Assembly (NCBI RefSeq): GCF_025685425.1
Contig: NZ_JAGTAS010000037.1
Location: forward strand, 1-32,742
Direction: 5' to 3'
DNA: 32,742 nucleotides
DNA from: Terriglobus albidus
GTDB lineage: Bacteria > Acidobacteriota > Terriglobia > Terriglobales > Acidobacteriaceae
The notes beneath the pieces were generated by a model that saw only the letters and a program-made list of their open reading frames with translations, did no database searches and had not been told where the DNA came from. The translations under genes and the position numbers were made by a program. This document shows positions 4,360-16,539 of the stretch, one piece after another; position 1 is the first letter of the stretch; each line of letters opens with the position of its first letter.

Positions 4360-5771
4360 GCCGCACCTCCCACGCGCGAGAAGATTCCCATCTGTGTTGG
4401 TGCACCGAGCATCTGGTCCTGTGGACCTACGGCTTGAAAGCGAACTTCATAGCCATATTGGTCAGCGATGCTTTTTGCCCAGGTCTCGAACTCCGCCCGG
4501 CTCCATTCGAAACGATGGTCGCGATGACGAAACTGTCCAGTGGGCAGCGTCTCAAAGACGGAGTTATATTCCACATTCGGTGTGGTGAGCACCACGTGCA
4601 TGGGACGTGCAAATGCGAAGAGAACACGCTCGAAGGCTTCCAGACGCGGAGCATCGAGATGCTCGATCACCTCAACGACCGTGGCGGCATCGAATCCGGA
4701 GAGCCGTTGATCGCGATACATCAACGAACCCTGCACGAGCTGGATGCGGTCCTTCTGCCGTTCCGGAAGGCGATCCAGATGAAGCCGTTCTTTGGCGACT
4801 TCGAGCGATTTCCACGAGACGTCCATACCGAGCGTGAACTCGAATTGCGGATCTGCCAGAAGGTAACGAAGCAGCTTGCCTTCACCGCATCCAAGGTCGA
4901 TGATCCGCCTTGCACCGAGGCCTCGAAGCACCGACAATACTGTACCCATGCGCTGTTCGTGCAGGCCGAGAGAACGCTCGACCTGCTGCTCTTCTTGGTT
5001 CCGTGTCTCTTCCTGATTTTCCTCTATTTCTGGAGTCTCTTCGGCGAGGCGATCGAGAGCCTCGCGCGTCAGACTGCGCTGGCGCTTGAGATAGCGGGAG
5101 ACGATCAGATCCTTTTCCGGATGCATGGCAAGCCACCCCTCGCCACGTTTCAGCAACTTTTCGACCTCGTCATCGCTGACCCAGTAATGTTTCTCGTTAT
5201 CCAGAACTGGAATCAGCACATAGAGGTGGGTCAACAGATCCCGCAACCGTGTCGTGGCAGCGATCTCGACAGAGGCATACCGCGACTCTCCCCAATCTGG
5301 AAAGGTTTCGTCCAGCAGGCCGCTTTCCGTCGAGATGCGATATCCGAGCGGCTCGAAGAGGCGTCGTACCAGCTCTGATCCCGAACCTGCAGCTATGGCC
5401 GGCAGTTTTGCGTTCAGGGGAAGAGATATGTCGACGAGTTCCTGACGCTCTTTGCTCCGGCCACTGAGGGCCGTCGCAAAAAGCCTGCCCAGCGCAACAC
5501 TCATAAACGAGTTGGCCGCATATGGCCGGTCGTTCACGTATTGCTGCAGTTGTCTGCCGTCTCCTGCAGGACCACGGCGTCCACGCACGAGTGCGATGGG
5601 ATCGACCTCCAGCAAAACCGCCACAGTGCAGCGATCGACGTTCGCTTCGGGATAGAACACATGCGCCTTCCCGAACGAGAGTTCTTCGGTCTGAAGGCGG
5701 GCTGGATTCTTATGTAGGAGATACCCGAGATCCGTCGCAGGAACATGGGCGGTAGAGATGGTTAGCAGCAT
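4356..5771 (-). CDS. hen1: 3'-terminal RNA ribose 2'-O-methyltransferase Hen1
   Basis: A 471-residue protein with the standard bacterial Hen1 layout. The N-terminal half (about 1-240), with YVNDRPYAANSFMSVALG near 78, is the part known to activate the Pnkp ligase. A charged Glu/Gln-rich linker covers about 245-265. The C-terminal SAM-dependent methyltransferase has motif I IIDLGCGEGKLL (290-301). Its metal-binding set is EVIEH (Glu367, Glu370, His371) with histidines in FRHRDHRFEW (416, 419). Methylation of the 2'-OH at the junction protects the repaired RNA from a second cut. It is the first gene of a two-gene operon and overlaps pnkp by ATGA. No good Shine-Dalgarno precedes the ATG. The 84-bp gap to the divergent membrane-protein gene holds at least that gene's promoter. 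Confidence 0.95.
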   Translation of the reverse strand: MLLTISTAHVPATDLGYLLHKNPARLQTEELSFGKAHVFYPEANVDRCTVAVLLEVDPIALVRGRRGPAGDGRQLQQYVNDRPYAANSFMSVALGRLFATALSGRSKERQELVDISLPLNAKLPAIAAGSGSELVRRLFEPLGYRISTESGLLDETFPDWGESRYASVEIAATTRLRDLLTHLYVLIPVLDNEKHYWVSDDEVEKLLKRGEGWLAMHPEKDLIVSRYLKRQRSLTREALDRLAEETPEIEENQEETRNQEEQQVERSLGLHEQRMGTVLSVLRGLGARRIIDLGCGEGKLLRYLLADPQFEFTLGMDVSWKSLEVAKERLHLDRLPERQKDRIQLVQGSLMYRDQRLSGFDAATVVEVIEHLDAPRLEAFERVLFAFARPMHVVLTTPNVEYNSVFETLPTGQFRHRDHRFEWSRAEFETWAKSIADQYGYEVRFQAVGPQDQMLGAPTQMGIFSRVGGAA

Positions 5772-5808
5772 GGAGGTTTTAGTCTACGTGACTGCCTCAT
5801 TTTGCGTG

Positions 5809-5837
5809 TTGACAGACCCGCGAAAGAGGATTACTTT
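5809..5837 (+). promoter_or_regulatory. Predicted sigma-70-type promoter of the membrane protein-regulator unit
   Basis: TTGACA (5809-5814), a 17-bp spacer and TACTTT (5832-5837). The predicted start is only about 12 nt before the ATG at 5856, so the mRNA would be nearly leaderless. The -10 box lies inside the palindromic operator at 5833-5849, which is the layout expected for repression. Confidence 0.55.
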
Positions 5838-5849
5838 GCAATGTAAAGT
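5833..5849. promoter_or_regulatory. Palindromic operator, copy 1
   Basis: ACTTTGCAATGTAAAGT has inverted arms ACTTT/AAAGT around a 7-bp centre. It differs at one of 17 positions from copy 2 at 6859-6875. It overlaps the predicted -10 box and start site, and is the likely binding site of the winged-helix regulator encoded at 6460-6843. Confidence 0.65.
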
Positions 5850-5855
5850 GAAGCG

Positions 5856-6470
5856 ATGAGCGACCTGCACAAAGCGCTTGGTGACATCAGCAGTATTCGT
5901 AAGCAACTGGCGAATACCACGGAGTTTCGTGGATATGGGGCGGCGACGCTGGCTGCTACCGGAGGCTTCGCTGGCCTTGCTGCGATTGCACAGGCGTACT
6001 GGGTGCCGGATCCGGTGCATCATCTGGCGGCGTATCTGGCGGTATGGGTCGCGACCGCAATTGTTTGTGCGGCGCTCACGGGAGTCCAGATGTATACCCG
6101 CACACGCCGTATGCACTCGGGCCTGTCGGATGAGATGCTTCGCATGGCGGTGGTGCAATTCCTGCCTTCGGCAGGTGCTGGTCTGTTGCTGACCGCTGTG
6201 CTGATGTCCTTTGCGCCTACGGTGACGTGGATGCTTCCCGGGCTGTGGCAAGTGATCTTCAGCATCGGCATCTTTTCTTCCTGCCGGTTTTTGCCGCGAG
6301 CTATGAGCGCAGCGGGCGCATGGTATCTTGCGACCGGACTTGGTTGTCTCTCGCTGGCGGGGAACCGCGCGCTTTCGCCATGGACGATGGGTGTTGCCTA
6401 TGGCGTCGGCCAGCTTCTGGTCGCCGGTGTTCTGTATGTGAACGCGGAAGGAGAGGGCGATGAAGTCTAA
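5856..6470 (+). CDS. Small multi-pass membrane protein upstream of winged-helix regulator
   Basis: A 204-residue protein of unknown function. After a short polar N-terminus (MSDLHKALGDISSIRKQL) there are about five or six hydrophobic segments, including AATLAATGGFAGLAAIAQA, LAAYLAVWVATAIVCAAL, AGLLLTAVLMSF and a final segment near GVAYGVGQLLVAGVLYV. The tail is acidic (EGEGDEV). Its 3' end overlaps the regulator gene by 11 nt, so the two are coupled. Such membrane proteins often accompany small winged-helix regulators and may act as sensor or modulator, but nothing in the sequence proves this. A predicted promoter and an operator lie directly upstream. Confidence 0.82.
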   Translation: MSDLHKALGDISSIRKQLANTTEFRGYGAATLAATGGFAGLAAIAQAYWVPDPVHHLAAYLAVWVATAIVCAALTGVQMYTRTRRMHSGLSDEMLRMAVVQFLPSAGAGLLLTAVLMSFAPTVTWMLPGLWQVIFSIGIFSSCRFLPRAMSAAGAWYLATGLGCLSLAGNRALSPWTMGVAYGVGQLLVAGVLYVNAEGEGDEV

Positions 6471-6843
6471 GTCTGTCTACGACGGTGGCCGTTTTGCCTA
6501 CGAGGGGCTCGACCGTGTGATTCATGAGCGGGCGCGTCTCAGCATCCTTACGTCGCTGGTAACAAATCCCAAAGGGCTGACCTTCAACGATCTCAAGCAG
6601 ATGTGCTCTCTGACAGACGGCAATCTGAGCCGGCACCTGAGCGTGCTGGAGAAGGAGAAGATGGTCGAGATCCTGAAAGGACACGATCAGAACCGCCCGC
6701 TTACCGTATGTCGCATGACCTCATCGGGGCGAAAGCGGTATCTCGAATATCTCACCACACTGGAGCAGGTGATTCGCGATGCTGCCGAAGATACGAAGCC
6801 CGTGGGAGCACAGGTGCGTGGCCTGACACCGTCACAAGCCTAA
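6460..6843 (+). CDS. Winged helix-turn-helix transcriptional regulator (MarR/ArsR-like)
   Basis: A 127-residue protein made almost entirely of a winged-helix DNA-binding domain of the PF13601 type. The segment from DRVIHERARLSILTSLV through LTFNDLKQMCSLTDGNLSRH to SVLEKEKMVEI gives the helix-turn-helix. RPLTVCRMTSSGRKRYLEYL forms the wing and last helix. GGAGAGG precedes the ATG, which lies inside the end of the membrane-protein gene. Two near-identical palindromes, one before this unit and one before creD, are its likely operators, giving autoregulation and control of creD. The ligand or signal is not apparent. Confidence 0.88.
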   Translation: MKSKSVYDGGRFAYEGLDRVIHERARLSILTSLVTNPKGLTFNDLKQMCSLTDGNLSRHLSVLEKEKMVEILKGHDQNRPLTVCRMTSSGRKRYLEYLTTLEQVIRDAAEDTKPVGAQVRGLTPSQA

Positions 6844-6858
6844 AAAATTTGTTCATTA

Positions 6859-6875
6859 ACTTTGCAATATAAAGT
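6859..6875. promoter_or_regulatory. Palindromic operator, copy 2
   Basis: ACTTTGCAATATAAAGT matches copy 1 at 16 of 17 positions. It lies in the 64-bp gap between the regulator gene and creD and contains TATAAA, which could be a -10 box. No convincing -35 box is seen at the right distance. Confidence 0.6.
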
Positions 6876-6907
6876 TCTTTGCAGTGGAGAGAAAAGGAGA
6901 GAAATCG

Positions 6908-8305
6908 ATGGCTGAATACTCAATCTTGCAGGTGCCGGTGCGAGGAATCTTTCGCTCATTATCGATGGGCGTAAAGCTGATCCTGATCTGTTTTCTGGCG
7001 TTGTTCATGACCATACCGTCGTTCTTTGTTGAGGGGCTTGTCAGAGAACGTACGAACCGTGCGAAGGAGGTCGCCAACGAGATCGGCAATGGCGTTGGCG
7101 GATCGCAGACCTTTCTCGGACCGACGCTTGCGATCCCCTATACAGCTCCAGGTTCGTTGCCATCAGCTCCTTTGGAACGAGGGACGTATTTTGTCTTCCC
7201 CGCGGATGGAAACGCGGCGATTAAAACGGCCACGGAGGAGCGCCATCGTTCGCTGTTCCGAGTGCCGGTCTTTCAGGCTGATCTGGTCTTCGACGCGAAC
7301 TTCGACCTGACGGGCGTTCCGGCGGCCCTGCCGAAGGACGGGACGCTGCACTGGGATGGAGCTGAGATTCTTGTGGGCGTAAGCGATCCGCGCGGTGCTT
7401 TAGCTGACGCGGTGCTTACGTCCGATGCCGGAACCGTGACGCTCACGCCTGCAAAGACGATCGATAGTGTCGTCATGGGAGAACAGAAGGAGCAGCAGAA
7501 ACTCTCGCTCATTGGAGCGCAGGCCGGCGAGCAGGCGAAGCCCGGAAGCAAATTCCACGTGAAGTCTGTCCTTAGGTTCTCCGGCGCCAACCGGATTGCC
7601 GTTCTTGCCTATGGCAAGACAACTCACCTCACAGCGCAGGGGGACTGGCGCACTCCCGGTTTTGACGGCGGTATTCCACCGGTCACCAGAAACCTCACCG
7701 AGCAGGGATATACCGCCGCCTGGTCCGTGCCTTTCATCGCCCGCAACGTACGCTCTGAAGGGGCAGGAAACATCCTGGCTTCGCTCGACACAACCAGCCT
7801 GGGAATCTCATTTGTAGAAGTCGCAGACCCCTATCAGTCGGTCGACCGGTCGCTGAAATACGCACTTCTCTTTCTCGGTATGGTCTTCCTCTCCTACTTC
7901 GTCTTTGAAGCGACGACGCGCAAGAGCGTACACCCTGCGCAGTATGTACTGGTTGGCATCGCACAGCTTATCTTCTATCTGCTGCTGCTTTCATTTGCGG
8001 AACGTATCGGCTTCAACTACGGATTTTTGATTGCAGGCGCCGCTACGGTGGGGTTGCTGTCCATCAATGCCGCATGGATCTTTGAGAGCCGGTTACAGGG
8101 CGTGCGGGCGCTCGCTATCTTCTCGCTGCTGTACACGATGATCTATCTGTTGCTGACGCTGGAGGACAATGCGCTCCTGGTGGGCTCGGTTGCCAGCTTC
8201 CTCGTCGTAGCGGCTGCGATGTACTTCACGCGGACGATCGACTGGTCTGGATCGGTGTCCGGCGCATCAGGCCCTGTGCCGGTCAATCAGGAAGGCACGC
8301 GATGA
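6908..8305 (+). CDS. creD: CreD-family inner membrane protein
   Basis: A 465-residue member of the CreD family (PF06123). The N-terminal membrane helix (SMGVKLILICFLALFMTIP) is followed by the family stretch FVEGLVRERTNRAKEVANEI. A large periplasmic domain with FLGPTLAIPY comes next. From about residue 310 onward there are five or six membrane helices, starting at KYALLFLGMVFLSYFVFEAT. I chose ATG at 6908, which follows AAGGAGAGAAATCG, over an in-frame GTG 24 nt earlier that lacks a Shine-Dalgarno. CreD is linked to beta-lactam and envelope stress in some gammaproteobacteria, but its biochemical role is unclear. Here it follows a winged-helix regulator and an operator, and overlaps a prenyltransferase gene by 4 nt. 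Confidence 0.9.
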   Translation: MAEYSILQVPVRGIFRSLSMGVKLILICFLALFMTIPSFFVEGLVRERTNRAKEVANEIGNGVGGSQTFLGPTLAIPYTAPGSLPSAPLERGTYFVFPADGNAAIKTATEERHRSLFRVPVFQADLVFDANFDLTGVPAALPKDGTLHWDGAEILVGVSDPRGALADAVLTSDAGTVTLTPAKTIDSVVMGEQKEQQKLSLIGAQAGEQAKPGSKFHVKSVLRFSGANRIAVLAYGKTTHLTAQGDWRTPGFDGGIPPVTRNLTEQGYTAAWSVPFIARNVRSEGAGNILASLDTTSLGISFVEVADPYQSVDRSLKYALLFLGMVFLSYFVFEATTRKSVHPAQYVLVGIAQLIFYLLLLSFAERIGFNYGFLIAGAATVGLLSINAAWIFESRLQGVRALAIFSLLYTMIYLLLTLEDNALLVGSVASFLVVAAAMYFTRTIDWSGSVSGASGPVPVNQEGTR

Positions 8306-9060
8306 CACACGAGGGACTGCATGTCGCCATCATCATGGATGGTAACGGCCGGTGGGCGACGCGGCGCGGGTTACCTCGCGTCGCCGGCCACCGTGCCGGG
8401 GTGGCTACGATCCGGCGTATTGTCGATCGCGCGCTGGATCATGGGATCGCCCGCCTTACGTTGTATGCCTTCTCGTCGGATAACTGGAGACGGCCAACCG
8501 CAGAGGTACAAGGTGTCTTCTGGCTGCTGCGAGCGTTTCTGAGGCTCGAAACGAATCGGCTTCAACAGCGAGGCGTACGGTTGCAGGCGATTGGCCGGCG
8601 TGACCGCTTAGCACCGATCGTTCGCGAGGCAATGGAAAAGGCCGAGATGTTGACGGCAGCGGGAGATCGTCTCGACCTCTGTGTGGCGATCGACTACTCC
8701 TCAAGGGAGACGATTGCACGGGCCGCGGCGGGAATGACGCTATCCGCAGACGAAGCCTCGCTTCAGCCGATACTGTCCCAGCGCCTCATGCGCAACAACA
8801 GTGACGTGGACCTTCTGATTCGTACCGGAGGAGAAAAACGGCTCTCTGACTTCCTTCTATGGGAGTCTGCCTATGCGGAGCTGTACTTTACCGATTGCAT
8901 GTGGCCCGACTTCGACGAGGTTGAATTCGATGCAGCCCTGGCGGAGTTCTATCGCAGGGACCGCCGTTTTGGTGGCCTCTCCGTGGCCTCACCCAGCACA
9001 GCGGTATCGACGCATTCGACTTTTGCCCTGAGTCTGACAGGAGTTCATGACGCACGCTGA
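8302..9060 (+). CDS. uppS: UppS-family cis-prenyltransferase (undecaprenyl diphosphate synthase)
   Basis: A 252-residue cis-prenyltransferase that would condense isopentenyl diphosphate units into the C55 lipid carrier for wall polymers. Visible signatures are IIMDGNGRWA with catalytic Asp13, HRAGVATIRRIV, LTLYAFSSDNWRRP, and the C-terminal RTGGEKRLSDFLLWESAYAE followed by WPDFDEVEF. The last 25 or so residues, after RRFGG, are not conserved. The ATG overlaps the creD stop (ATGA), so the genes are coupled, and AGGAAGG precedes it. The housekeeping uppS usually sits with cdsA or other wall genes, so this copy in a creD operon may be a second paralogue. That is inference, because the rest of the genome is not visible. 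Confidence 0.92.
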   Translation: MTHEGLHVAIIMDGNGRWATRRGLPRVAGHRAGVATIRRIVDRALDHGIARLTLYAFSSDNWRRPTAEVQGVFWLLRAFLRLETNRLQQRGVRLQAIGRRDRLAPIVREAMEKAEMLTAAGDRLDLCVAIDYSSRETIARAAAGMTLSADEASLQPILSQRLMRNNSDVDLLIRTGGEKRLSDFLLWESAYAELYFTDCMWPDFDEVEFDAALAEFYRRDRRFGGLSVASPSTAVSTHSTFALSLTGVHDAR

Positions 9061-9547
9061 GGCTCTTCGCCGCATCCGATTCTGGCTCGTTTTCTTCATC
9101 ATTGGACTGGTTCTCAGCGGCGTCACTGCCTTTCCACTGAAGACCGAGCTGGACTGGCTTGCTGCCGGCCTGCATCATTCATGGATTCAACCAGCCGCGG
9201 CATCCACGCATCTGCTGCCGTGGATCGACCGTGTGCAACAGGCATTGACGGTGACAAGTTCCAGATATCCGTTTCTGGCCTACGGAACAGACTGGTTGGC
9301 ATTCGCGCACCTCGTTATCGCCATTGCCTTTGTTGGGCCGTACGTTGATCCCGTCCGTAACAAGTGGGTGATCACCTTCGGTCTCATCGCCTGCGCGGCA
9401 GTGATTCCCCTCGCCTTGATCGCCGGACAGGTGCGGGGGATTCCGTTTGGCTGGAGGATGATCGACTGCAGTTTCGGTATTTTCGGAGCCATTCCGCTTC
9501 TGCGGTGCAAGCAACTCATCCAAGCGATCGAGTTGGGGAAGCGGTAG
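9047..9547 (+). CDS. Hypothetical four-helix membrane protein, end of creD-uppS operon
   Basis: A 166-residue protein with about four predicted membrane helices: FWLVFFIIGLVLSGVTAF, WLAFAHLVIAIAFVGPYV, WVITFGLIACAAVIPLALIA, and a weaker one near DCSFGIFGAIPLL. The loop between helices 1 and 2 is long and histidine-containing (GLHHSW). I do not recognise the family. The ATG follows AGGAG at short spacing and overlaps the end of uppS by 14 nt, so the protein belongs to the same operon and may act in the envelope. No terminator is evident after it. Confidence 0.8.
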   Translation: MTHAEALRRIRFWLVFFIIGLVLSGVTAFPLKTELDWLAAGLHHSWIQPAAASTHLLPWIDRVQQALTVTSSRYPFLAYGTDWLAFAHLVIAIAFVGPYVDPVRNKWVITFGLIACAAVIPLALIAGQVRGIPFGWRMIDCSFGIFGAIPLLRCKQLIQAIELGKR

Positions 9548-9647
9548 GACAGCGAATTTGATTCCGGTGTTCAGAAAGACTTGCCTGAGCGCCAATTCTT
9601 AGATACTTGTGGATAGGGCCGCAACTGAGCCGGTTGTCCATATCAAG

Positions 9648-10625
9648 ATGCCAAACGTTCAGCTTTACGCACCATCGATTGTTCTCGAGTGGGAGAATGT
9701 GAAAGCAAGCGGTATCGCTCGCGTCACACGTGCTCTTGGTGAAGTCAGCCTCCAACTCAAGGAAGTTCAGAATGAGCTACGCGGACCGGCCGAGCTCATT
9801 GTCTGCTATGAAGAATGTGTGATCTCCGGCATGGCTCTGCGCTCTCTACTGGAACGTGCTGCAGCACCTGGTGGATGGCAGTGTTCTGTGATTACTGTGC
9901 CTGTGCCCTCTGGCACGCACTACTACGAGAAGAAGAACGCCGGTGCGCGAGCATCCAGCAATGACATCGTGCTGTTCCTGGACTCCGATCTGTTGCCTGA
10001 TCCTGGCTGGCTGCGGAACATGCTTACCGTCTTCAACGACTGGTCTGTGTCGGCAATTATCGGAGCGACTCATCTCGACCACGCCACGCCTTATGAAATG
10101 GCCGTAGCTCTGTTCTGGATCTTCGATCCGGCGACGCATGGACGCGGCATTCAGCCGTTGCGGCTCATTACGGCTAATAATCTGGCATTTCGCCGCGCGC
10201 TCTTCATGCGCTTTCCCTACCCATCTCATCCTGTGTTTCGAGGCCAGTGCGGTCATCATGCCAAAACATTGATGGCGGCAGGGATTCTTCTGGAAAGACA
10301 TACGGATGCGCGCGCATCGCATCCACCCCCGGCAGGATTTGCGGGATTCATTCGGCGCGCCTGGGCGGCCGGTAAAGATGAATGCTTCTATCAGAGCCTG
10401 GAAAGACGGGTCTCTCCTATGTCCGCTTTTCGCCAGTGGCAGCACGACCTCGGCGTGGTTAGGCGGCGCATGCAGGAGCGGTGCATTCTGCTGCGGCCGA
10501 CCCCCGTCGGCCAGGCACTCGGCTGGCTATTGGGATGGGTATACTACTCCATCAAGGCGGCTGGGTTCCTAACGTCGGCTTCTTGTCGAGAAACCAAGAC
10601 CGCCGGCCAGCGGCTAACGGTCTGA
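9648..10625 (+). CDS. Family 2-like glycosyltransferase
   Basis: A 325-residue GT-A fold glycosyltransferase resembling GT2. An N-terminal strand (LIVCYEECV) is followed by the nucleotide-sugar region GTHYYEKKNAGARASSNDIV and the metal-binding DxD motif FLDSDLLPDPGWLRN. An acceptor segment (LRLITANNLAFRRALF) and a hydrophobic patch near the C-terminus (LGWLLGWVYYSIKAAGFL) follow. Neither start candidate has a clear Shine-Dalgarno. ATG at 9648 gives MPNVQLYAPSIVLEW, while GTG at 9609 would add 13 residues. The gene converges on the lasso-peptide operon with 13 bp between its stop and that operon's terminator. A role in decorating the peptide is possible but unproven. Confidence 0.8.
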   Translation: MPNVQLYAPSIVLEWENVKASGIARVTRALGEVSLQLKEVQNELRGPAELIVCYEECVISGMALRSLLERAAAPGGWQCSVITVPVPSGTHYYEKKNAGARASSNDIVLFLDSDLLPDPGWLRNMLTVFNDWSVSAIIGATHLDHATPYEMAVALFWIFDPATHGRGIQPLRLITANNLAFRRALFMRFPYPSHPVFRGQCGHHAKTLMAAGILLERHTDARASHPPPAGFAGFIRRAWAAGKDECFYQSLERRVSPMSAFRQWQHDLGVVRRRMQERCILLRPTPVGQALGWLLGWVYYSIKAAGFLTSASCRETKTAGQRLTV

Positions 10626-10638
10626 ATTTTGGCACAGG

Positions 10639-10668
10639 AAAAAGCGTCATCACAAAGGTAGTGACGCT
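10639..10668 (-). terminator. Intrinsic terminator of the lasso-peptide operon
   Basis: On the minus strand AGCGTCA (10668-10662), a 12-nt loop, TGACGCT (10649-10643) and then TTTT (10642-10639). It lies about 34 bp after the precursor stop codon. There is no T-tract on the plus strand, so it serves the lasso operon and not the convergent glycosyltransferase gene. Confidence 0.75.
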
Positions 10669-10701
10669 CTGCACTATCTATCGAAGAACTGCCGGATCTA
10701 G

Positions 10702-10869
10702 CTACGACGCGCAGGTGGTACCATCGGCGGAAGCAGACGCATGTCCGAGCAGGGTTGCCACAGAGACCTCGGCTACTTTAGCAGCCGGTTTGATCCATTC
10801 ACGCAGAGCAGGAGTCCGCTCCTGATTGAGGCCGGTGGGGGATGCATGAAGGTTTACTTCAGGGTTCAT
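10702..10869 (-). CDS. Lasso peptide precursor (A), likely C-terminally phosphorylated
   Basis: A 55-codon gene overlapping the 3' end of the kinase gene by 11 nt, with AGGAG 10 nt before its ATG. The leader holds W25-x-x-P28, a form of the YxxP motif bound by PqqD-like RREs, and Thr39 just before the cleavage region (SVATLLG). The probable core is GHASASADGTTCAS (42-55). Gly42 would bond to Asp49, giving an 8-residue ring. If Thr39 is the canonical -2 residue, the core starts at Leu41 with a 9-residue ring to the same Asp. The peptide ends in Ser55, the residue type that paeninodin-like kinases phosphorylate. The tail is only six residues long and has no bulky plug. Cys53 is the sole cysteine. 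Position last in the operon and before the terminator supports the call. Confidence 0.8.
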   Translation of the reverse strand: MNPEVNLHASPTGLNQERTPALREWIKPAAKVAEVSVATLLGHASASADGTTCAS

Positions 10870-11737
10870 CGGTTGTGGTCTCCTGAGAAATCGATGCAGC
10901 GATTCTACGGCCTACGGTATCTATAAGCAATGTTGCTCTGTCATAGACAGAAGAATCGCTTCGTAAGATGAAAATCTCCGCCGTTGAGGATATCTGGGCG
11001 ACGGTTCTCAGGTGACCTTCCTGGCATCCCAGCGCTTTCAGGTAATTCGGTTTGTACGTATTGGCAGTCACAAGCGCAAGTCTCTCGGGACCACGCACCG
11101 GCAGCACGCATTGTGGAATGCCTCGCTCCAGCAAAAAGACAGCTCGGAGCGGAAGCGGCCCACCGGCTGTTTCGATGGGAAAAAGATACTTATCACGCTC
11201 TCCAGGGAGTGGATTCAAAGTTCCGGTATCGATGTCGAGTCGCTCGCATGCATCGCGCCACAATTTGAGTCCGGCTTTGCTGGGCCATGCCATCACCTGC
11301 GTCCGTTCTACATAGAGGGGTGTCACGTCGTCGCCCAGCAGGGACCATCCGCGTCTGACTAGTTCTGCCGCCAGAGTCGACTTTCCTGCTCCGGAGTGTC
11401 CGGCGACCGCAACTGCGTATCCAGCGGCAGGTGGCGTCAGACAGGCCGCATGCAGCGGCACGCCCCCGCGTTGATGGACCAGGGTTGCGCGTGCCGCTCC
11501 GGTAAGGTACTGGTCCACAGCGATTGGATCCGCGCCTTCGTCCCAGGCTACTTCGATGAGATCTCCGTTGGTGATGCGAAAGCGCGCGACTCCGGGAACG
11601 GTGTGCACCAGGGCGCCTGGTCGTGCGATGGACCAGCCGCCGCACTGCACTGCGCCGTCCAACGTTTCTGGAAGCGTAGGGACTCTTCGTATCTCCGCGC
11701 CTGGGACTCCTGCGACAATATCTCCCCGCGGTTTCAA
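10859..11737 (-). CDS. HPr kinase-like lasso precursor peptide kinase
   Basis: A 292-residue protein with an HprK-like C-terminal kinase core. His96 lies in VPLHAACL, the Walker A motif is GHSGAGKST (113-121) and the acidic pair is LLGDD (Asp136, Asp137). Similar kinases in lasso clusters (paeninodin type) phosphorylate the C-terminal serine of the precursor peptide. The start is TTG at 11737, seven bases after the cyclase stop, with CAGGAG inside the cyclase's last codons as Shine-Dalgarno. The precursor gene starts within its last codons. This gene order (B2, C, kinase, A) makes the precursor its natural substrate. It is not the phosphotransfer-system HprK itself: the N-terminal part differs and no ptsH is nearby. 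Confidence 0.88.
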   Translation of the reverse strand: MKPRGDIVAGVPGAEIRRVPTLPETLDGAVQCGGWSIARPGALVHTVPGVARFRITNGDLIEVAWDEGADPIAVDQYLTGAARATLVHQRGGVPLHAACLTPPAAGYAVAVAGHSGAGKSTLAAELVRRGWSLLGDDVTPLYVERTQVMAWPSKAGLKLWRDACERLDIDTGTLNPLPGERDKYLFPIETAGGPLPLRAVFLLERGIPQCVLPVRGPERLALVTANTYKPNYLKALGCQEGHLRTVAQISSTAEIFILRSDSSVYDRATLLIDTVGRRIAASISQETTTDEP

Positions 11738-11744
11738 AGTAACG

Positions 11745-13601
11745 TTACTCCTGTTTCAGCAGAAAAAGTCCTGCATCCATGACACGGTCAACGGGTGCGG
11801 TTAGTTCCGGCGACCGATTTCCGGCTCCTATCCGATCGAATATTCCAGCGAGTTCCTGAAAATTGAAGAGCTCACGGCAAACCGCGGACTGCTGCATACG
11901 TTCCGCCAGAGAGCGATAACGCGCTAGCGCAACGGCCATTGCCGCAGAGTAGTCCGCCGCCTGTGATCCTCGCTGTGTCCGCAGCCGGATCTCTTCCGGC
12001 AGTCGCCTGCGTCCCAGAGCCCGGGCCAGGCCACGCGATCTTCCTTCCTGCAGAAATGCCACCAGAGGGAATGAGAGCAGAAGTTCCAGCAGGCGTTTGT
12101 CTGCGAGTGGATCGCGCCATTCAGATCCCCACATCGCAAGCGTATCGGCGGCCCAGGGGAAGGCCGGCAGGGTCGCGCTGCGGCTTGCCGCTGCGCGCGT
12201 ACCAGGGGTTGGGCGTCTGGGATGTATCAGCGCGCGGTAGCGTCGTTGAAATGAGTTGGACGTCAGTGAAAGAACCGCAAGGTCAGATCTGTTGACGGCT
12301 GGAAAGAGTTGCCTGATCGCGGGTGGCAAGACTCCGGCGCGAAGGGTCTTCCATATCGGCGAACCCTGACCTTGTCTAAGCTCCCTCGCAGATCGCCATG
12401 CGTGCAGAAAGCGTCCTCCCCTCAGCAACTCGATATTGGCTCCGGCCCCTGAGTAGCTAATGCTGAAGTTTCCACGAGCGCCGACCAGCATGACTCCTTC
12501 ACCAGCGGTTTTGTGAATGGCATCCATCCATAGGTGGTTGGCGCCGTTCCGTACCGGTGTGGCGGAGGTGGCATGAATCTCCGGCAATAGATCGAGTGCA
12601 ATCCGTCCATCACCACGTATGACGAAATGTTCGATGTTCGAATGCATGGCTGCGGTCAACGAAGCACACGCTGCATCGTCGGCATCCCAGCCCCGCCGCT
12701 CAAAGACCGGGACGCCATTTGCTGGCGCTGCCGTGAACGCTTTCAGAGTTTTACCCTGAGCCCGAAGCAACATGGCCGCCGTCGCGGAGACCAGGCCGGA
12801 ATCCAATCCCCCGCTCAGGTTGGCGCTGATGGGCTGAGCCGAGCGCAGGCAGCATGCCACCGCCCGGTCAAAGGCTTCGCGCGCCGCAGCGACATATTCC
12901 TCGGAGCGGAGATATCGTGTGGCGTGAGTTGACGGCTGCCACCATCGGGAAGTCGTAACTTCGCCGTTGCGCCAACGGAGGCAAGATCCTCCTTCGACGC
13001 GATGTATGCGGCGAAACGGCGTTCTCCCCTGGATGTAACGTGCTTCGGCTGAAAGTCCGAGTAGGACCTCATCCACGCCGCCATGTTCTTCAGACTGGGC
13101 CAGGGCTGCCAGTTGAGAACATATCGCCAGTCTCCTGTCGTTTACAACGAAGTAGAGCCGATAGTGTCCGATGTGGTCGACAGCCGCATAGACACTATCC
13201 GTCTCCCCCATGTAGGCGGCGAAGGCGTAGTCTCCGGCGAGATGCTGGTGTATCTCTTCTCCCCAACGCTGCCACGCGGCAAACAGCAGACTGGAGTCAG
13301 CGACGCCGCTGCGCTTGGGCATATCCAGCTTGGGCAACAGCTCCTCGCGGTTGTCCAGTCGGGCCTGGCAGACAAACAGTGTGCGGCCGTCGTGCGACCG
13401 TAGTGGTTGCACGTCGTATTGATCTTCAGGAAGCAAGCCGGGTGCGCGGGCGGCGGCGACTGCATCGTGCCGCGTGACGGAAGGGCCCGGTGGCACAGTC
13501 CGCAGAGGGCCGGCACTCGCCGGTCCGCGCATGCGGACGGCGAGGCGCACGACCTCTTCCTGGGTCGTGCCTTTGTGCTGATCGACAATCAGCGCGAACA
13601 T
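11745..13601 (-). CDS. Lasso peptide cyclase, asparagine synthase-like (C)
   Basis: A 618-residue asparagine synthase homologue. The N-terminal glutaminase-like domain (about 1-200) begins MFALIVDQ and lacks the catalytic Cys2 of true asparagine synthases. The C-terminal synthetase domain has the ATP-binding PP-loop SGGLDSG (263-269). In lasso clusters this enzyme adenylates the side-chain carboxyl of the ring Asp/Glu and joins it to the core N-terminus. Loss of Cys2 fits, because no glutamine-derived ammonia is needed. The ATG overlaps the end of B2 by 13 nt, and the kinase follows after 7 nt, so the genes are co-transcribed. General asparagine synthase is an alternative, but the B2 neighbour and the precursor argue against it. 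Confidence 0.9.
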   Translation of the reverse strand: MFALIVDQHKGTTQEEVVRLAVRMRGPASAGPLRTVPPGPSVTRHDAVAAARAPGLLPEDQYDVQPLRSHDGRTLFVCQARLDNREELLPKLDMPKRSGVADSSLLFAAWQRWGEEIHQHLAGDYAFAAYMGETDSVYAAVDHIGHYRLYFVVNDRRLAICSQLAALAQSEEHGGVDEVLLGLSAEARYIQGRTPFRRIHRVEGGSCLRWRNGEVTTSRWWQPSTHATRYLRSEEYVAAAREAFDRAVACCLRSAQPISANLSGGLDSGLVSATAAMLLRAQGKTLKAFTAAPANGVPVFERRGWDADDAACASLTAAMHSNIEHFVIRGDGRIALDLLPEIHATSATPVRNGANHLWMDAIHKTAGEGVMLVGARGNFSISYSGAGANIELLRGGRFLHAWRSARELRQGQGSPIWKTLRAGVLPPAIRQLFPAVNRSDLAVLSLTSNSFQRRYRALIHPRRPTPGTRAAASRSATLPAFPWAADTLAMWGSEWRDPLADKRLLELLLSFPLVAFLQEGRSRGLARALGRRRLPEEIRLRTQRGSQAADYSAAMAVALARYRSLAERMQQSAVCRELFNFQELAGIFDRIGAGNRSPELTAPVDRVMDAGLFLLKQE

Positions 13602-14041
13602 TCGTCTTGCCCTCCGTCGTTGCGGAAGTGATAGATCGGCGCATATCGCCCCATTTCGCTACGTCCGGTAACGACGATGCCGGCGGCTTCGAGCCAGGCA
13701 TGAGCATTCACCGTCGTACCGGCCGTGGGCAATACCGCCAGCGTCAGGCATGAGGCGACTTGCCGCCGTGCAAGGACGCGTTGTGCGGCAATCGCCCGCA
13801 TCAGGCAGGTCGGTCTCCATGGGATGCGGCGTAGGATGCCACCCATGGCTTCCCGCACCTGGCGAACGATCTCTGGCTGCCTGCCGGGCGCACACTGTTC
13901 ACTTATGGGGGACTGCAGGGTGGCGGCTGTTCTATCGAAGGGCCGGTGGAGGATCATATGTCGCGCGCGGAGCAGTTCGAGAGCACACTCGCCCATCAGA
14001 CACACACGTCTCAGGCGTTTTTGGAGGGATTGCGCGTTCAA
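13589..14041 (-). CDS. Lasso peptide leader protease, transglutaminase-like (B2)
   Basis: A 150-residue stand-alone B2 protein. The catalytic cysteine is in RPTCLMRAIAAQRVLAR (Cys79) and the catalytic histidine in NAHAWLEAAG (His114). The acidic third residue is not obvious. The length matches split B2 proteins, which lack the RRE found in fused McjB enzymes, and a PqqD-like RRE is encoded next door. The start is TTG at 14041, supported by AGGAGA six bases upstream; the first in-frame ATG lies 15 codons later. It is the first gene of the B2-cyclase-kinase-precursor operon. It would cut the leader peptide from the core so that the cyclase can close the ring. Confidence 0.9.
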   Translation of the reverse strand: MNAQSLQKRLRRVCLMGECALELLRARHMILHRPFDRTAATLQSPISEQCAPGRQPEIVRQVREAMGGILRRIPWRPTCLMRAIAAQRVLARRQVASCLTLAVLPTAGTTVNAHAWLEAAGIVVTGRSEMGRYAPIYHFRNDGGQDECSR

Positions 14042-14102
14042 GAAAATCTCCTGCTACAGTCTATGAGAAACATCTTCGGCTGTTTCCGTCACGCAGATTC
14101 TT

Positions 14103-14378
14103 ATGGTTCAGACTTTTCCCATTTTCAAACGCTCCGCTGAGGTCGTTGCCGCTCACGTTGACGATAAGTCACTTCTTTTGCACATCACGGATTGGGTGTA
14201 CCTGGAACTTAATGAGAGCGGCAGCCGCATCTGGGAACTGCTCGGCGACGGGCGTACTCTGGATGACCTGGTCGGCGATCTATGCCGCGAATTCAAGGTC
14301 GATGCCCAAACCTGCTCCGCCGATACATCGGAGCTGCTTGAGATGCTCGAAGCCAAACGCTTTATCCAGCGTGGTTAG
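14103..14378 (+). CDS. PqqD-like RiPP recognition element protein (lasso B1)
   Basis: A 91-residue PqqD-family protein. An N-terminal three-stranded sheet (LLLHITDWVYLELNESGSRI) is followed by a winged-helix part (WELLGDG, then LDDLVGDLCREFKVDA). In split lasso systems this protein binds the leader peptide and delivers it to the B2 protease. It is divergent from B2 with a 61-bp gap, and its last 17 bases overlap the 3' end of the convergent GT17-like gene. This is unusual, since B1 normally lies in the same operon just before B2. The ATG has no clear Shine-Dalgarno. RRE identity is firm from the fold pattern; the assignment to this peptide rests on the neighbours. Confidence 0.88.
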   Translation: MVQTFPIFKRSAEVVAAHVDDKSLLLHITDWVYLELNESGSRIWELLGDGRTLDDLVGDLCREFKVDAQTCSADTSELLEMLEAKRFIQRG

Positions 14379-15483
14379 TTTCTTGCGCTGCATCTTTGAA
14401 CCTCGCTCCGAAGCTGCGTAAGACCACCGCCGCTGCCGCGCGTCCTGTATCCAGCAATAGCAGCAGGGGCGTGAGAAACGGCAGACAGCGTTCGAAGTGA
14501 TCGTCGATACGGCGTACGCCTGCATCGGTCCATAGAGAGAGCTGCCGGAGCCAGGCCCAGGTGCGCACGCACCGTCTACGCCACATCGGTGGAACCGGCC
14601 GTCCCCGGAGTGTCTCAGGGCAGGCTGTTGCAAGCGCGGCGAGATCCGATGGAAGATCTCCGCCCGGAGGTTCTGCGTACCACCAGCCGCGATGATGGAC
14701 GGCATGTTCCTCGCAGCGTGCCAGATGTGGCGGGTATACGCCGCGCTCGCCTGACCACTCAACATGGAAGACGCGTTTGAGCTTCTGCGAAAGCTGGGCG
14801 GAGGGATCAACGGCTGTCAGGTGCCGCCCACATGCGGGAAGAGTCAGTTCGATGTCGGTTTGAAAACGCCATTGGTAGGGTGTTCTTCCGTTCGTTCCGC
14901 GCAGGCATCCCACAGGAACAGCGACCCCTGACCGGCCATGCCACCGTGATCCCGGCTCCCAGCACTCGCCGGCGATGTGGCCCGAGGCAAAGGCAAATGG
15001 CTGTAAGCGGTCAATGCAGCAGGTCGAAGCCGGCGCCAGCAGGTCCAGCCGCTGGTAATGACGCGTCATCTCCAGGCGATGCGGTGCATGTAGTCCCTTG
15101 CTCCGGAGGCGTTCAAGCAGCGACTTGCTCGGAATCTCATCTGCATCCAGAAGTAATACGATTTCATTCTCTGTCGCATCCATCAGAGCGAGTAAGAGGG
15201 CATTGCGTTGGACTGCTGCACGTGTCCGGGGGACGGCATCCGGCGGTCCGAGCGAGTGCAATGTCACCGGTCGGATCTTCTCTGCCGCCCAGGCAAAGCG
15301 TGCACGATTTTCGGCGAAGATGAGTGGTTTGGGGGTGCCGCGATAGGTTTCGGCGGCTTCAATCAGGATAAAAAAATCCGTGGCGTCGAAGTTTTGACGC
15401 AGACGGTGCTCCAGCAAGTCGAGCTCTCCGTCGAAGAGAAAAGTGTCATAGATGCGCCGTGACCTGGATGTGTTCGCGTCCAT
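14362..15483 (-). CDS. GT17-like glycosyltransferase beside the lasso cluster
   Basis: A 373-residue protein resembling glycosyltransferase family 17 (beta-1,4-N-acetylglucosaminyltransferase type). It begins with RIYDTFLFDGELDLLEHRL and FFILIEAAETYRGTPKPL. The metal-binding motif is VLLLDADEIPS. The downstream region contains HVEWSGERGVYPPHLARCEE and HHRGWWYAEPPGGD. GGGGAG precedes the ATG. It is on the same strand as the lasso operon but separated from it by the oppositely oriented PqqD gene, which it overlaps by 17 nt at the 3' ends. It could decorate the lasso peptide or simply be an envelope glycan enzyme; the sequence cannot decide. Confidence 0.8.
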   Translation of the reverse strand: MDANTSRSRRIYDTFLFDGELDLLEHRLRQNFDATDFFILIEAAETYRGTPKPLIFAENRARFAWAAEKIRPVTLHSLGPPDAVPRTRAAVQRNALLLALMDATENEIVLLLDADEIPSKSLLERLRSKGLHAPHRLEMTRHYQRLDLLAPASTCCIDRLQPFAFASGHIAGECWEPGSRWHGRSGVAVPVGCLRGTNGRTPYQWRFQTDIELTLPACGRHLTAVDPSAQLSQKLKRVFHVEWSGERGVYPPHLARCEEHAVHHRGWWYAEPPGGDLPSDLAALATACPETLRGRPVPPMWRRRCVRTWAWLRQLSLWTDAGVRRIDDHFERCLPFLTPLLLLLDTGRAAAAVVLRSFGARFKDAAQETNHAG

Positions 15484-15621
15484 CTTCTCCCCTTCGCATG
15501 GTACCCGGGCACAACGTTACTTCGGGAAAGTGTCTCTCTTTTTCCACCTGAGATTTTGTTCGTATTTCGCGGCGCTGAGCATACACTAGGGGTCGCCCTA
15601 AACATCCTGTGGAGTTCTTCT

Positions 15622-16539
15622 GTGAAAAAACCAGCGCTTCTGGCAGTTGTTACTGCCATGTCTATCTTGTCCTCTGCCTCTGCCATCGCGCAGGCCAGCC
15701 GCACCTGGGTCTCCGGTGTCGGTGACGATGCTAACCCCTGCAGCCGCACTGCACCTTGCAAGACTTTTGCAGGCGCCATCTCGAAGACCGCGCCGAACGG
15801 AGAAATTGACGCACTCGATCCCGGCGGTTTTGGCCCAGTGACTATCACTAAGTCCATTACGATCGACGGTGGACCCAATGCTGGCGGTATTGCGGGAGCC
15901 GGCACGAACGGCATCGTCATTTCGGCCGCATCCACCGATGTCGTTACTATTCGCAACCTCTACATTGAGTGCCAGGGGACCACGCCTTGTAACCAGGGCG
16001 TCCAAATTTATAGCGGGAAGGTTGTTCATCTTAATCACGTTGATATCGGCGGATTTACGAATGGCGTGAACCAGGCCTCCGCCTCGACGACAAATCCGAC
16101 CACTCTCTTCGTGGATTACTCCATGATCCATGACTGCACCGCCGCAGGGATTAACGTCAGCCCCGCTGTTGTGAGTAATGCTTCTATCGCACATACTATG
16201 CTGCAAAACAATCAGAACGGCATCAATGTGAGTGACTATGCCAAGGTCGCCGCGAATGATGTGATTGCCGATGGCAACAGCAATGCCGGTTTCAAGGTGA
16301 CGGCCAACACGGCTTCCGCTTCGCTGAATCTGTTCAACAGCAGTGCTGTCAGCAATACCGTAGCCGGAATACAGGTAACGGGTACCGGTTCGGTAACCGC
16401 CACTGCGCGGATTAGCGGCGTTTCTACAGCGTCGAATGGCGTAGCGATCTCTACGTCAGGACCGTCGGCTGTTTTGAGCTTCCAGAACAATCCCATTATC
16501 GGGGCTGGTTTGCCGACGGGAAACATCGCACTGCAGTAA
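15622..16539 (+). CDS. Secreted right-handed parallel beta-helix protein
   Basis: A 305-residue exported protein. The start is GTG at 15622, seven bases after GGAG. It gives a signal peptide (MKKPALLAVVTAMSILSSAS) with likely cleavage after AIA or AQA. The mature part begins with a cysteine-containing segment (DDANPCSRTAPCKTFAGA). A run of beta-helix coils follows, with repeats of the N-x-G-I-x-V type (DCTAAGINV, NNQNGINV, GNSNAGFKV, SNTVAGIQV). The family is common in acidobacteria and its substrate is unknown. No catalytic residues could be assigned. A strong terminator follows the stop. It is divergent from the GT17-like gene with a 138-bp gap. Confidence 0.85.
   Translation: MKKPALLAVVTAMSILSSASAIAQASRTWVSGVGDDANPCSRTAPCKTFAGAISKTAPNGEIDALDPGGFGPVTITKSITIDGGPNAGGIAGAGTNGIVISAASTDVVTIRNLYIECQGTTPCNQGVQIYSGKVVHLNHVDIGGFTNGVNQASASTTNPTTLFVDYSMIHDCTAAGINVSPAVVSNASIAHTMLQNNQNGINVSDYAKVAANDVIADGNSNAGFKVTANTASASLNLFNSSAVSNTVAGIQVTGTGSVTATARISGVSTASNGVAISTSGPSAVLSFQNNPIIGAGLPTGNIALQ

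What the first reader, a model, noticed from the sequence alone, without database searches (positions are those of the whole stretch)
10702..14378. Lasso-peptide cluster with a small precursor gene hidden at the end of the kinase gene
B2 protease, cyclase, kinase and PqqD-like RRE are all recognisable. A 55-codon gene overlaps the kinase 3' end by 11 nt, has AGGAG upstream, a WxxP leader motif, and a core with Gly or Leu at position 1 and Asp at 8 or 9. It is followed at once by an intrinsic terminator. Genes this short are easily missed by standard calling. The core sequence GHASASADGTTCAS is not one I know from a described lasso peptide.
Basis: partly seen in the sequence, partly recalled or inferred. 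Interest (0 to 1): 0.85.

Follow-up and report, generated by a model that had tools for sequence, protein, structure and literature searches.

The report
Phosphorylated, glycosylated lasso-peptide gene cluster
A soil Acidobacterium carries genes for a small ring-and-tail peptide whose overlooked precursor gene is very probably real, and which a kinase and an unusual sugar-attaching enzyme probably decorate at its tail end.

Summary
A 55-codon gene (10702-10869, -) overlaps the kinase 3' end by 11 nt and is very probably a lasso-type precursor. A same-genus genome (G007; chromosome length equal to Terriglobus saanensis SP1PR4) keeps the block GT2-A-K-C-B2-B1-GT17 with a homologous precursor in the same slot.

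GT17 (14362-15483) belongs to a rare subfamily: 2 of 399 sampled genomes of the class, and 3 of 385, 1 of 246 and 1 of 149 in other (partly overlapping) samples. All seven loci hold a precursor with WxxP, Thr 14 residues after the Trp, one core Asp and the end Asp-x(2-4)-Cys-x(0,1)-Ser (10 of 10 precursors). Of six comparison precursors without GT17, one has that Cys.

[quoted passage not shown] The tail lacks bulky residues, so added groups may act as the stopper (inference).

Against: no product seen; Thr would sit at -3, not -2; the Tistrella-type loci lack a nearby cyclase. New variant of a known kind.

The parts
10702..10869 (-). precursor gene A, 55 codons; leader to about residue 41, core GHASASADGTTCAS (residues 42-55)
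   Evidence: homologue in the same slot in G007; AGGAG 10 nt upstream; 11-nt overlap with K
10859..11737 (-). HPr-kinase-like peptide kinase K (TTG start, AGGAG upstream)
   Evidence: PF07475 28.7 bits (below cut-off 33.3), TIGR04352 33.1 bits (below cut-off 200); H96, K119, D136, D137 invariant in 3 of 3; PDB HPrK matches at E about 3e-6
11745..13601 (-). lasso cyclase C (asparagine-synthetase-like)
   Evidence: PF00733 81.6 bits; NF033535 182.7 bits, below its 525 cut-off; SGGLDSG motif; 46% identical to G007
13589..14041 (-). leader peptidase B2
   Evidence: NF033537 64.5 over cut-off 33; Cys79 and His114 invariant in 5 aligned B2, third acid not evident
14103..14378 (+). B1, PqqD-like RRE, opposite strand to A, K, C and B2
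   Evidence: PF05402 65.2 bits; same inverted placement in G007
14362..15483 (-). family-17 glycosyltransferase GT17, upstream of B2, with invariant D113xD115
   Evidence: PF04724 73.5 bits over cut-off 26; 41-57% identity to GT17 of four other precursor loci
9609..10625 (+). family-2 glycosyltransferase GT2, converging on A; found in 2 of 40 loci scanned, the window and G007
   Evidence: PF00535 30.9 bits over cut-off 23.3; 48% identical in G007; scans

Best explanation
A lasso-peptide-type RiPP cluster. B1 binds the leader through WxxP. While the peptide is still linear, the HPr-kinase-like K phosphorylates the C-terminal Ser, and GT17 (with GT2 perhaps extending the sugar) glycosylates the C-terminal segment. 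B2 then removes the leader, and C closes Gly1 to Asp8 around the tail, giving GHASASADGTTCAS minus water plus phosphate plus sugar. Shown by sequence: the genes, the homologous precursor in the same slot of a second species, the kinase catalytic residues, the shared C-terminus, and the association of GT17 with precursors ending Cys-x(0,1)-Ser. Inferred: order of steps, Ser14 phosphorylation, a sugar on the tail, core start at Gly, and threading. Rough likelihoods: lasso-type precursor 0.93; Ser14 phosphorylation 0.75; GT17 acts on the peptide 0.65; on Cys12 specifically 0.3.
For: Domain matches. The block GT2-A-K-C-B2-B1-GT17 is conserved in G007 at 43-61% identity (A 49% over 37 columns). Of 20 window genes tested against 16 kb of G007 (3.8 kb beyond GT2, 6 kb beyond GT17), outside the five genes from A to GT17 only GT2 and the gene at 15556 match. 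GT17 subfamily: 2 of 399 genomes (E <= 1e-25), 3 of 385, 1 of 246 and 1 of 149 (E <= 1e-40), each time with such a precursor within about 4.2 kb. Two of these loci (G847, G976) were found by GT17 alone and then proved to hold precursors ending GCAS, YCVS and YCGS. 10 of 10 precursors at the 7 GT17 loci end Cys-x(0,1)-Ser. Core start at Gly gives ring size 7-9 in 10 of 13 precursors and Gly1 in 7 of 13, against 8 of 13 and 3 of 13 for the Thr(-2) start. C-terminal Ser is the known kinase site in paeninodin-type clusters (PMC9266682 passages; PMC8498205 passages).
Against: No product or transcript is known. C scores far below the NCBIfam lasso-cyclase cut-off and K below Pfam's. Neither core start satisfies every rule: Gly1 puts Thr at -3, while Thr(-2) gives ring size 10 in G007. 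Three of 13 precursors (two in L040, one in L043) have their only Asp at 10-11 from the favoured start. The search with A missed the T. roseus precursor (no match at E <= 0.01), and the L040 and L043 precursors are not among the best-scoring stretches of their loci. The three Tistrella-type loci have A, GT17, K and sulfotransferases but no C, B1 or B2 within the stretches read, so the tailoring set does not always travel with a cyclase. No transporter was found among 27 window ORFs scanned with Pfam.
Confidence: 0.72

Rival explanations
1. Ordinary paeninodin-like phosphorylated lasso cluster. GT17 and GT2 are neighbours that make cell-surface sugar and have nothing to do with the peptide; the conserved Cys is part of the kinase recognition site.
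For: Kinase, C-terminal Ser and all lasso genes are present. GT2 is kept only in the genus pair. One of six comparison precursors without GT17 also ends in Cys-Ser (L048).
Against: GT17 of this subfamily is rare in four samples of genomes yet sits in one locus with a precursor in 7 of 7 cases (35, 50, 51), in several gene orders. Five of the seven loci were known before those searches.
Confidence: 0.2
2. Linear decorated RiPP: the product is phosphorylated and glycosylated but not threaded, as proposed for the Bacillota LPP family.
For: Three Tistrella-type loci have A, GT17, K and sulfotransferases without a nearby cyclase. The LPP family has RRE, HprK-like kinase and NTP transferase but no cyclase (PMC13381572 passages). 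Tails after the Asp are only 5-7 residues, with few bulky residues.
Against: In the window, G007, L040 and L043 the precursor has a cyclase in the same locus, and in the window, G007 and L040 also B1 and B2. One and only one acidic residue is kept in each of the 10 GT17 cores. The Tistrella-type genomes hold Asn-synthetase-like proteins elsewhere, on the same replicon about 34 kb away at the nearest in G811, though that model also matches ordinary control genomes.
Confidence: 0.12
3. Glyco-phospho peptide: the sugar is put on the phosphate of the C-terminal Ser, as in pseudomycoidin, by GT17 instead of a nucleotidyltransferase; the Cys serves another role such as disulfide dimerisation.
For: Pseudomycoidin carries hexose on phospho-Ser (PMC9266682 passages). 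All 13 accepted precursors end in Ser.
Against: Would not explain why Cys sits at -2 or -3 from the end in 10 of 10 GT17 precursors.
Confidence: 0.2

Closest known systems
Paeninodin-type phosphorylated lasso peptides (PadeK, ThcoK, SyanK)
   Same: HPr-kinase-like kinase with His-Lys-Asp-Asp residues, split B1/B2, cyclase, precursor ending in Ser
   Different: A lies last, after K, and B1 is on the opposite strand; Trp in the leader motif, with the Thr one residue nearer to it than in canonical precursors; GT17 present; conserved Cys-x-Ser end; no transporter found in the window
Pseudomycoidin (phosphorylated and glycosylated lasso, PsmK/PsmN)
   Same: kinase plus a sugar-adding step in one lasso cluster
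   Different: sugar step ascribed to a nucleotidyltransferase-like protein there (passages), a family-17 glycosyltransferase here
BsfA of Bradymonas sediminis (Ile(-2), phospho-Ser3)
   Same: kinase-bearing lasso cluster departing from Thr(-2); its authors note Ile/Val(-2) precursors in Acidobacteriaceae (abstract)
   Different: kinase site is Ser3 and the precursor ends in Asp; here the C-terminus is Ser and -2 would be Leu
Glycosylated lasso peptide of Sun et al. 2025 (iterative glycosylation on one residue)
   Same: lasso peptide tailored by glycosylation
   Different: paper not held, known only from citations; that it is the Ser glycosylation mentioned in the review is my inference; enzyme family not seen
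Linear polyphosphorylated peptides (LPP)
   Same: HprK-like kinase and RRE
   Different: LPP clusters lack a cyclase and carry a signal-peptidase-like protease (passages); the window has B2 and C

Membership tests
lasso peptide cluster | leader peptidase B2 (transglutaminase-like) | tested here: met
   NF033537 64.5 bits over cut-off 33; Cys79, His114 invariant in 5 of 5
lasso peptide cluster | RRE (B1, PqqD-like) | tested here: met
   PF05402 65.2 over 23.4; lasso-specific NCBIfam models match below their cut-offs
lasso peptide cluster | Asn-synthetase-like lasso cyclase | tested here: inconclusive
   PF00733 over cut-off; best NCBIfam model is the lasso cyclase (182.7 bits) but below its 525 cut-off
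lasso peptide cluster | small precursor with WxxP or YxxP leader and Asp/Glu at core position 7-9 | tested here: met
   W25xxP28, Asp8 or Asp9; homologue in G007; no NCBIfam lasso precursor model was reported for it
lasso peptide cluster | Thr at leader position -2 | tested here: inconclusive
   Thr at -3 with the Gly1 start (ring 7-9 in 10 of 13 precursors), at -2 with the Leu1 start (8 of 13)
lasso peptide cluster | threaded macrolactam product | not testable with these tools
   needs expression and MS/NMR
paeninodin-type phosphorylated lasso | HPr-kinase-like kinase with His-Lys-Asp-Asp residues | tested here: met
   H96, K119, D136, D137 invariant in 3 of 3; motif named in PMC9266682 passages; my matching of residues to the motif is by position, not by a solved structure
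paeninodin-type phosphorylated lasso | C-terminal Ser in the precursor | tested here: met
   Ser55; the same in the 13 accepted precursors of this leader type, window included
pseudomycoidin-type | nucleotidyltransferase beside the kinase | tested here: not met
   none among the nine proteins of 8302-15483 scanned with Pfam; GT17 instead
linear polyphosphorylated peptides | no cyclase in the cluster | tested here: not met
   C is present in the window

The most novel reading that the evidence does not exclude
A class of S-glycosylated, C-terminally phosphorylated lasso peptides, in which a family-17 glycosyltransferase puts a sugar on the conserved tail Cys and the added sugar (with the phosphate) serves as the stopper that holds a tail of small residues in the ring.
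Probability: 0.17. Interest if true: 0.85.

Novelty: new variant of a known kind. Interest (0 to 1): 0.58.

Why it matters
Class II lassos are typically held by bulky side chains (PMC13352647 passages). Here the tail GTTCAS has none, while enzymes for two modifications sit beside the precursor. If the modifications supply the stopper, tailoring would be part of the fold rather than decoration, and the kinase or glycosyltransferase could become tools for making lassos from otherwise unlockable sequences. Searches of 5.39 million open papers for lasso peptide with sulfotransferase (15 papers, 14 listed), glycosyltransferase (81, 25 listed), Terriglobus (1) and S-glycosyl/glycocin/glycosyltransferase family 17 (83, 15 listed) showed no listed title or abstract start that describes this combination; unlisted and subscription papers were not seen.

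Tried and rejected
Another precursor in the cluster: a scan for WxxP/YxxP/FxxP ORFs with Thr at 14 or 15 gave only A plus one hit at 7624-7791. The G008 match lies inside a 354-aa frame and was set aside. Searches printed many other pattern matches in the relatives, mostly without terminal Ser; I rejected them by place and sequence, so 'all 13 end in Ser' partly rests on judgement.

Terminator as evidence for A: dropped, not above chance.

Structure of GT17: predicted from 4 sequences, mean pLDDT 54.8. Best matches are GT-A glycosyltransferases, ThuS/SunS S-glycosyltransferases among them, but none at E <= 0.001; it says GT-A-like at most and does not tell Cys from Ser/Thr. GT17 profile against PDB sequences: no match up to E 1.

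More members: a profile of the 13 precursor tails against 98 genomes of the order of L047 found only its own source genome below E 0.01; ten of 98 had something at E <= 0.1, not followed. GT17 in viral contigs gave 9 partial matches, not followed; in plasmids 9 records, one of them a near-full match, Tistrella pTM1. Five of eight genomes behind the kinase loci L040-L048 (L042 not among them) have no GT17. GT17 searches scored only the first-look candidates (5-13 per genome), on samples that partly overlap.

Cys/GT17 comparison (Fisher p 0.0014 by precursor; 0.024 if counted as 4 GT17 lineages against 6): the groups were chosen by me after seeing the data and are related by descent, so p is only a guide. 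The six comparison precursors (T. roseus, L047, L048, L033, L035, L096) were those judged credible by place and sequence; the last three have another leader type. Nine other Ser-ended ORFs (in L024, L046, L087, L088, L089, L093, two in L097, L098) were left out as doubtful; none ends Cys-x(0,1)-Ser. Precursors not ending in Ser (L094, L097, L098, L101, L103) were left out; many kinase loci gave no credible precursor. The L043 precursor was found only by a search that required the Cys...Ser end, the other nine GT17 precursors without it. Five of the seven GT17 loci were known before the GT17 searches; G847 and G976 are new finds.

Full report
What is there. The window is contig 40 of a 6.1-Mb genome. 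The genus is that of Terriglobus roseus DSM 18391: session genome G011 has the same chromosome length (5,227,858) as NC_018014.1 returned, and is 'same genus'. On the minus strand, in order of transcription, lie GT17 (15483-14362), B2 (14041-13589), C (13601-11745), K (11737-10859) and A (10869-10702). B1 (14103-14378) lies on the plus strand between GT17 and B2 and overlaps the 3' end of GT17 by 17 nt. A second glycosyltransferase, GT2 (9609-10625, +), converges on A. Pfam and NCBIfam support each enzyme, with two matches under curated cut-offs: K (28.7 against 33.3) and the lasso-cyclase model for C (182.7 against 525). No transporter turned up among 27 window ORFs scanned with Pfam. NCBIfam reports nothing for A or for eight related precursors with the limit at E 10 (its filters drop most matches above about 0.1), while a canonical acidobacterial precursor from L097 run beside them matches lasso leader models weakly (best E 0.0014, just under the cut-off). 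The four remaining precursors were not run.

Is A real? In 150 relatives, the search with A finds, besides itself, G007 (E 0.003) and one match inside a long frame of G008 that I set aside; it does not find the T. roseus precursor at E <= 0.01. G007 is also the genome with by far the nearest cyclase (46%). There the precursor starts 30 nt after the K stop (coordinates), in a block GT2-A-K-C-B2-B1-GT17 with the same orientations. Of 20 window genes tested against the 16 kb of G007, which reach 3.8 kb beyond GT2 and 6 kb beyond GT17, GT2 and the gene at 15556 match. Among 305 open stretches of that locus the precursor scores 76 and the next best 36; in T. roseus 54 against 41, in Tistrella 51 against 41, but in L040 and L043 the proposed precursors are not among the four best. 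The G007 chromosome length, 5,095,226 bp, equals that printed for T. saanensis SP1PR4 (PMC3570800 passages); the identification rests on that.

A family across phyla. A profile of three kinases found nine loci in GTDB genomes and matches in 18 of 396 sampled genomes of the phylum, own genome included. Around them and around GT17 matches, precursor ORFs were sought by pattern. Thirteen that I accept share WxxP, a Thr exactly 14 residues after the Trp, and a C-terminal Ser: window, G007, T. roseus, Verrucomicrobia L040 (two), Sphingomonadales L043, Tistrella and two Tistrella-type genomes (five in all), Sphingomonas L047, Oceanicella L048. Canonical acidobacterial kinase clusters (L094, L097, L098, L101, L103) instead have Thr at 15, which is position -2 when the aromatic residue is at -17 as described in PMC10368454. 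Counting the core from residue 17 after Trp gives the first Asp at 7-9 in 10 of 13 and Gly1 in 7 of 13; from residue 16 (Thr at -2), 8 of 13 and 3 of 13; from 18, 7 of 13 and 3 of 13. I therefore favour GHASASADGTTCAS with Thr at -3, as a lean rather than proof; the L040 and L043 precursors fit neither of the first two counts.

GT17. The GT17 proteins of five of these loci align along their length with 41-57% identity to the window's and keep a DxD. The subfamily is rare: 2 of 399 sampled genomes of the class at E <= 1e-25 (G000 and G007), and at E <= 1e-40 3 of 385 in the class of Tistrella, 1 of 246 in the order of L043 (partly the same genomes) and 1 of 149 in the phylum of L040. All seven loci hold at least one such precursor, within about 4.2 kb of GT17, and all ten precursors end Asp-x(2-4)-Cys-x(0,1)-Ser with a single core Asp followed by 5-7 residues. 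Six comparison precursors without GT17 have that Cys end in one case. Two loci (G847, G976) were found through GT17 alone and then showed the expected precursor; they look like congeners of a known one, so this is a modest test.

Other tailoring. In 15 of the 36 loci that hold a kinase match, a sulfotransferase match lies beside it (six of these proteins confirmed with Pfam for L038, L040, L043, L045), and T. roseus adds an APS kinase. The window and G007 have none by that scan and carry GT2 instead. Tistrella mobilis has A, GT17, K and two sulfotransferases on plasmid pTM1, with both precursor genes absent from the record's gene table, which PLSDB distributes incompletely. No B1, B2 or C was found in the stretches read of the three Tistrella-type loci; the one B2-type match of each genome is on another contig, and Asn-synthetase-like matches are scattered, the nearest in T. 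mobilis about 34 kb from GT17. So either a cyclase works in trans or these products are linear.

How it most likely works. Kinases of this type phosphorylate the C-terminal Ser of the linear precursor (PMC9266682 passages; PMC8498205 passages), and an RRE can accelerate such a kinase (PMC10368454: outline, parts 1-3 of 6 of the text, and the discussion). The window's kinase keeps the four residues and its substrate ends in Ser. GT17 is most likely a second tail-modifying enzyme. Whether the sugar goes on Cys12, on Thr, or on the phosphate is open; the Cys association favours Cys or a site read together with it. The tail after Asp8, GTTCAS, has no bulky residue, whereas class II lassos are typically held by such residues (PMC13352647 passages). 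The added groups could serve instead; this is inference.

Literature. Glycosylated lassos are known: pseudomycoidin, and one cited in PMC13352647 (primary papers not held). Kinase-bearing lasso clusters of Acidobacteria are known (PMC9064862 passages; PMC10368454). In the listings I saw no title or abstract start that joins lasso peptides with GT17 or with sulfotransferase tailoring. The Pontixanthobacter paper lists a lasso B2 protein, PqqD, asparagine synthase, sulfotransferases, a nucleotidyltransferase and a glycosyltransferase with neighbouring cluster numbers in a table (passages).

Verdict. Observation confirmed, reading supported and extended. New variant of a known kind.

Noticed in passing
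L038 (T. roseus DSM 18391): 3800-8280 - and 10377-10640 +: Precursor, sulfotransferase, kinase, APS kinase and cyclase in a row, B1 on the other strand: looks like a lasso cluster with its own sulfate-donor supply. The genome's only B2-type match is 2.8 Mb away beside another B1 and kinase (L120).
   Followed up: partly
L045/L147, L085, L086 (Tistrella type): Precursors with GT17, kinase and sulfotransferases but no cyclase, B1 or B2 found in the stretches read; the two T. mobilis precursor genes are absent from the pTM1 gene table. Possibly linear decorated peptides.
   Followed up: partly
loci (e.g. L044, L046, L087, L089, L092, L093, L096, L100): HPr-kinase-like genes next to sulfotransferase genes recur (15 of 36 kinase loci) in Acidobacteriota and other phyla, many of them lasso-type loci.
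   Followed up: no
L028 (own genome, contig 27: 45000-61000): A second lasso-type cluster: B2 7363-7794, C 5495-7369, an APH-like phosphotransferase 7791-9164 and a candidate precursor 5271-5573 (YIKP...).
   Followed up: no
window 15556-16539 +: Protein with no Pfam match, 47% identical to one on the same side of the G007 cluster; may belong to the conserved block.
   Followed up: no
window 1804-5771 -: Pnkp/Hen1 RNA-repair pair (PF16542, PF12623).
   Followed up: no
window 13589-14041 -: B2 keeps Cys and His, but the third catalytic acid (triad recalled, not from a call) is not evident in this clade.
   Followed up: no
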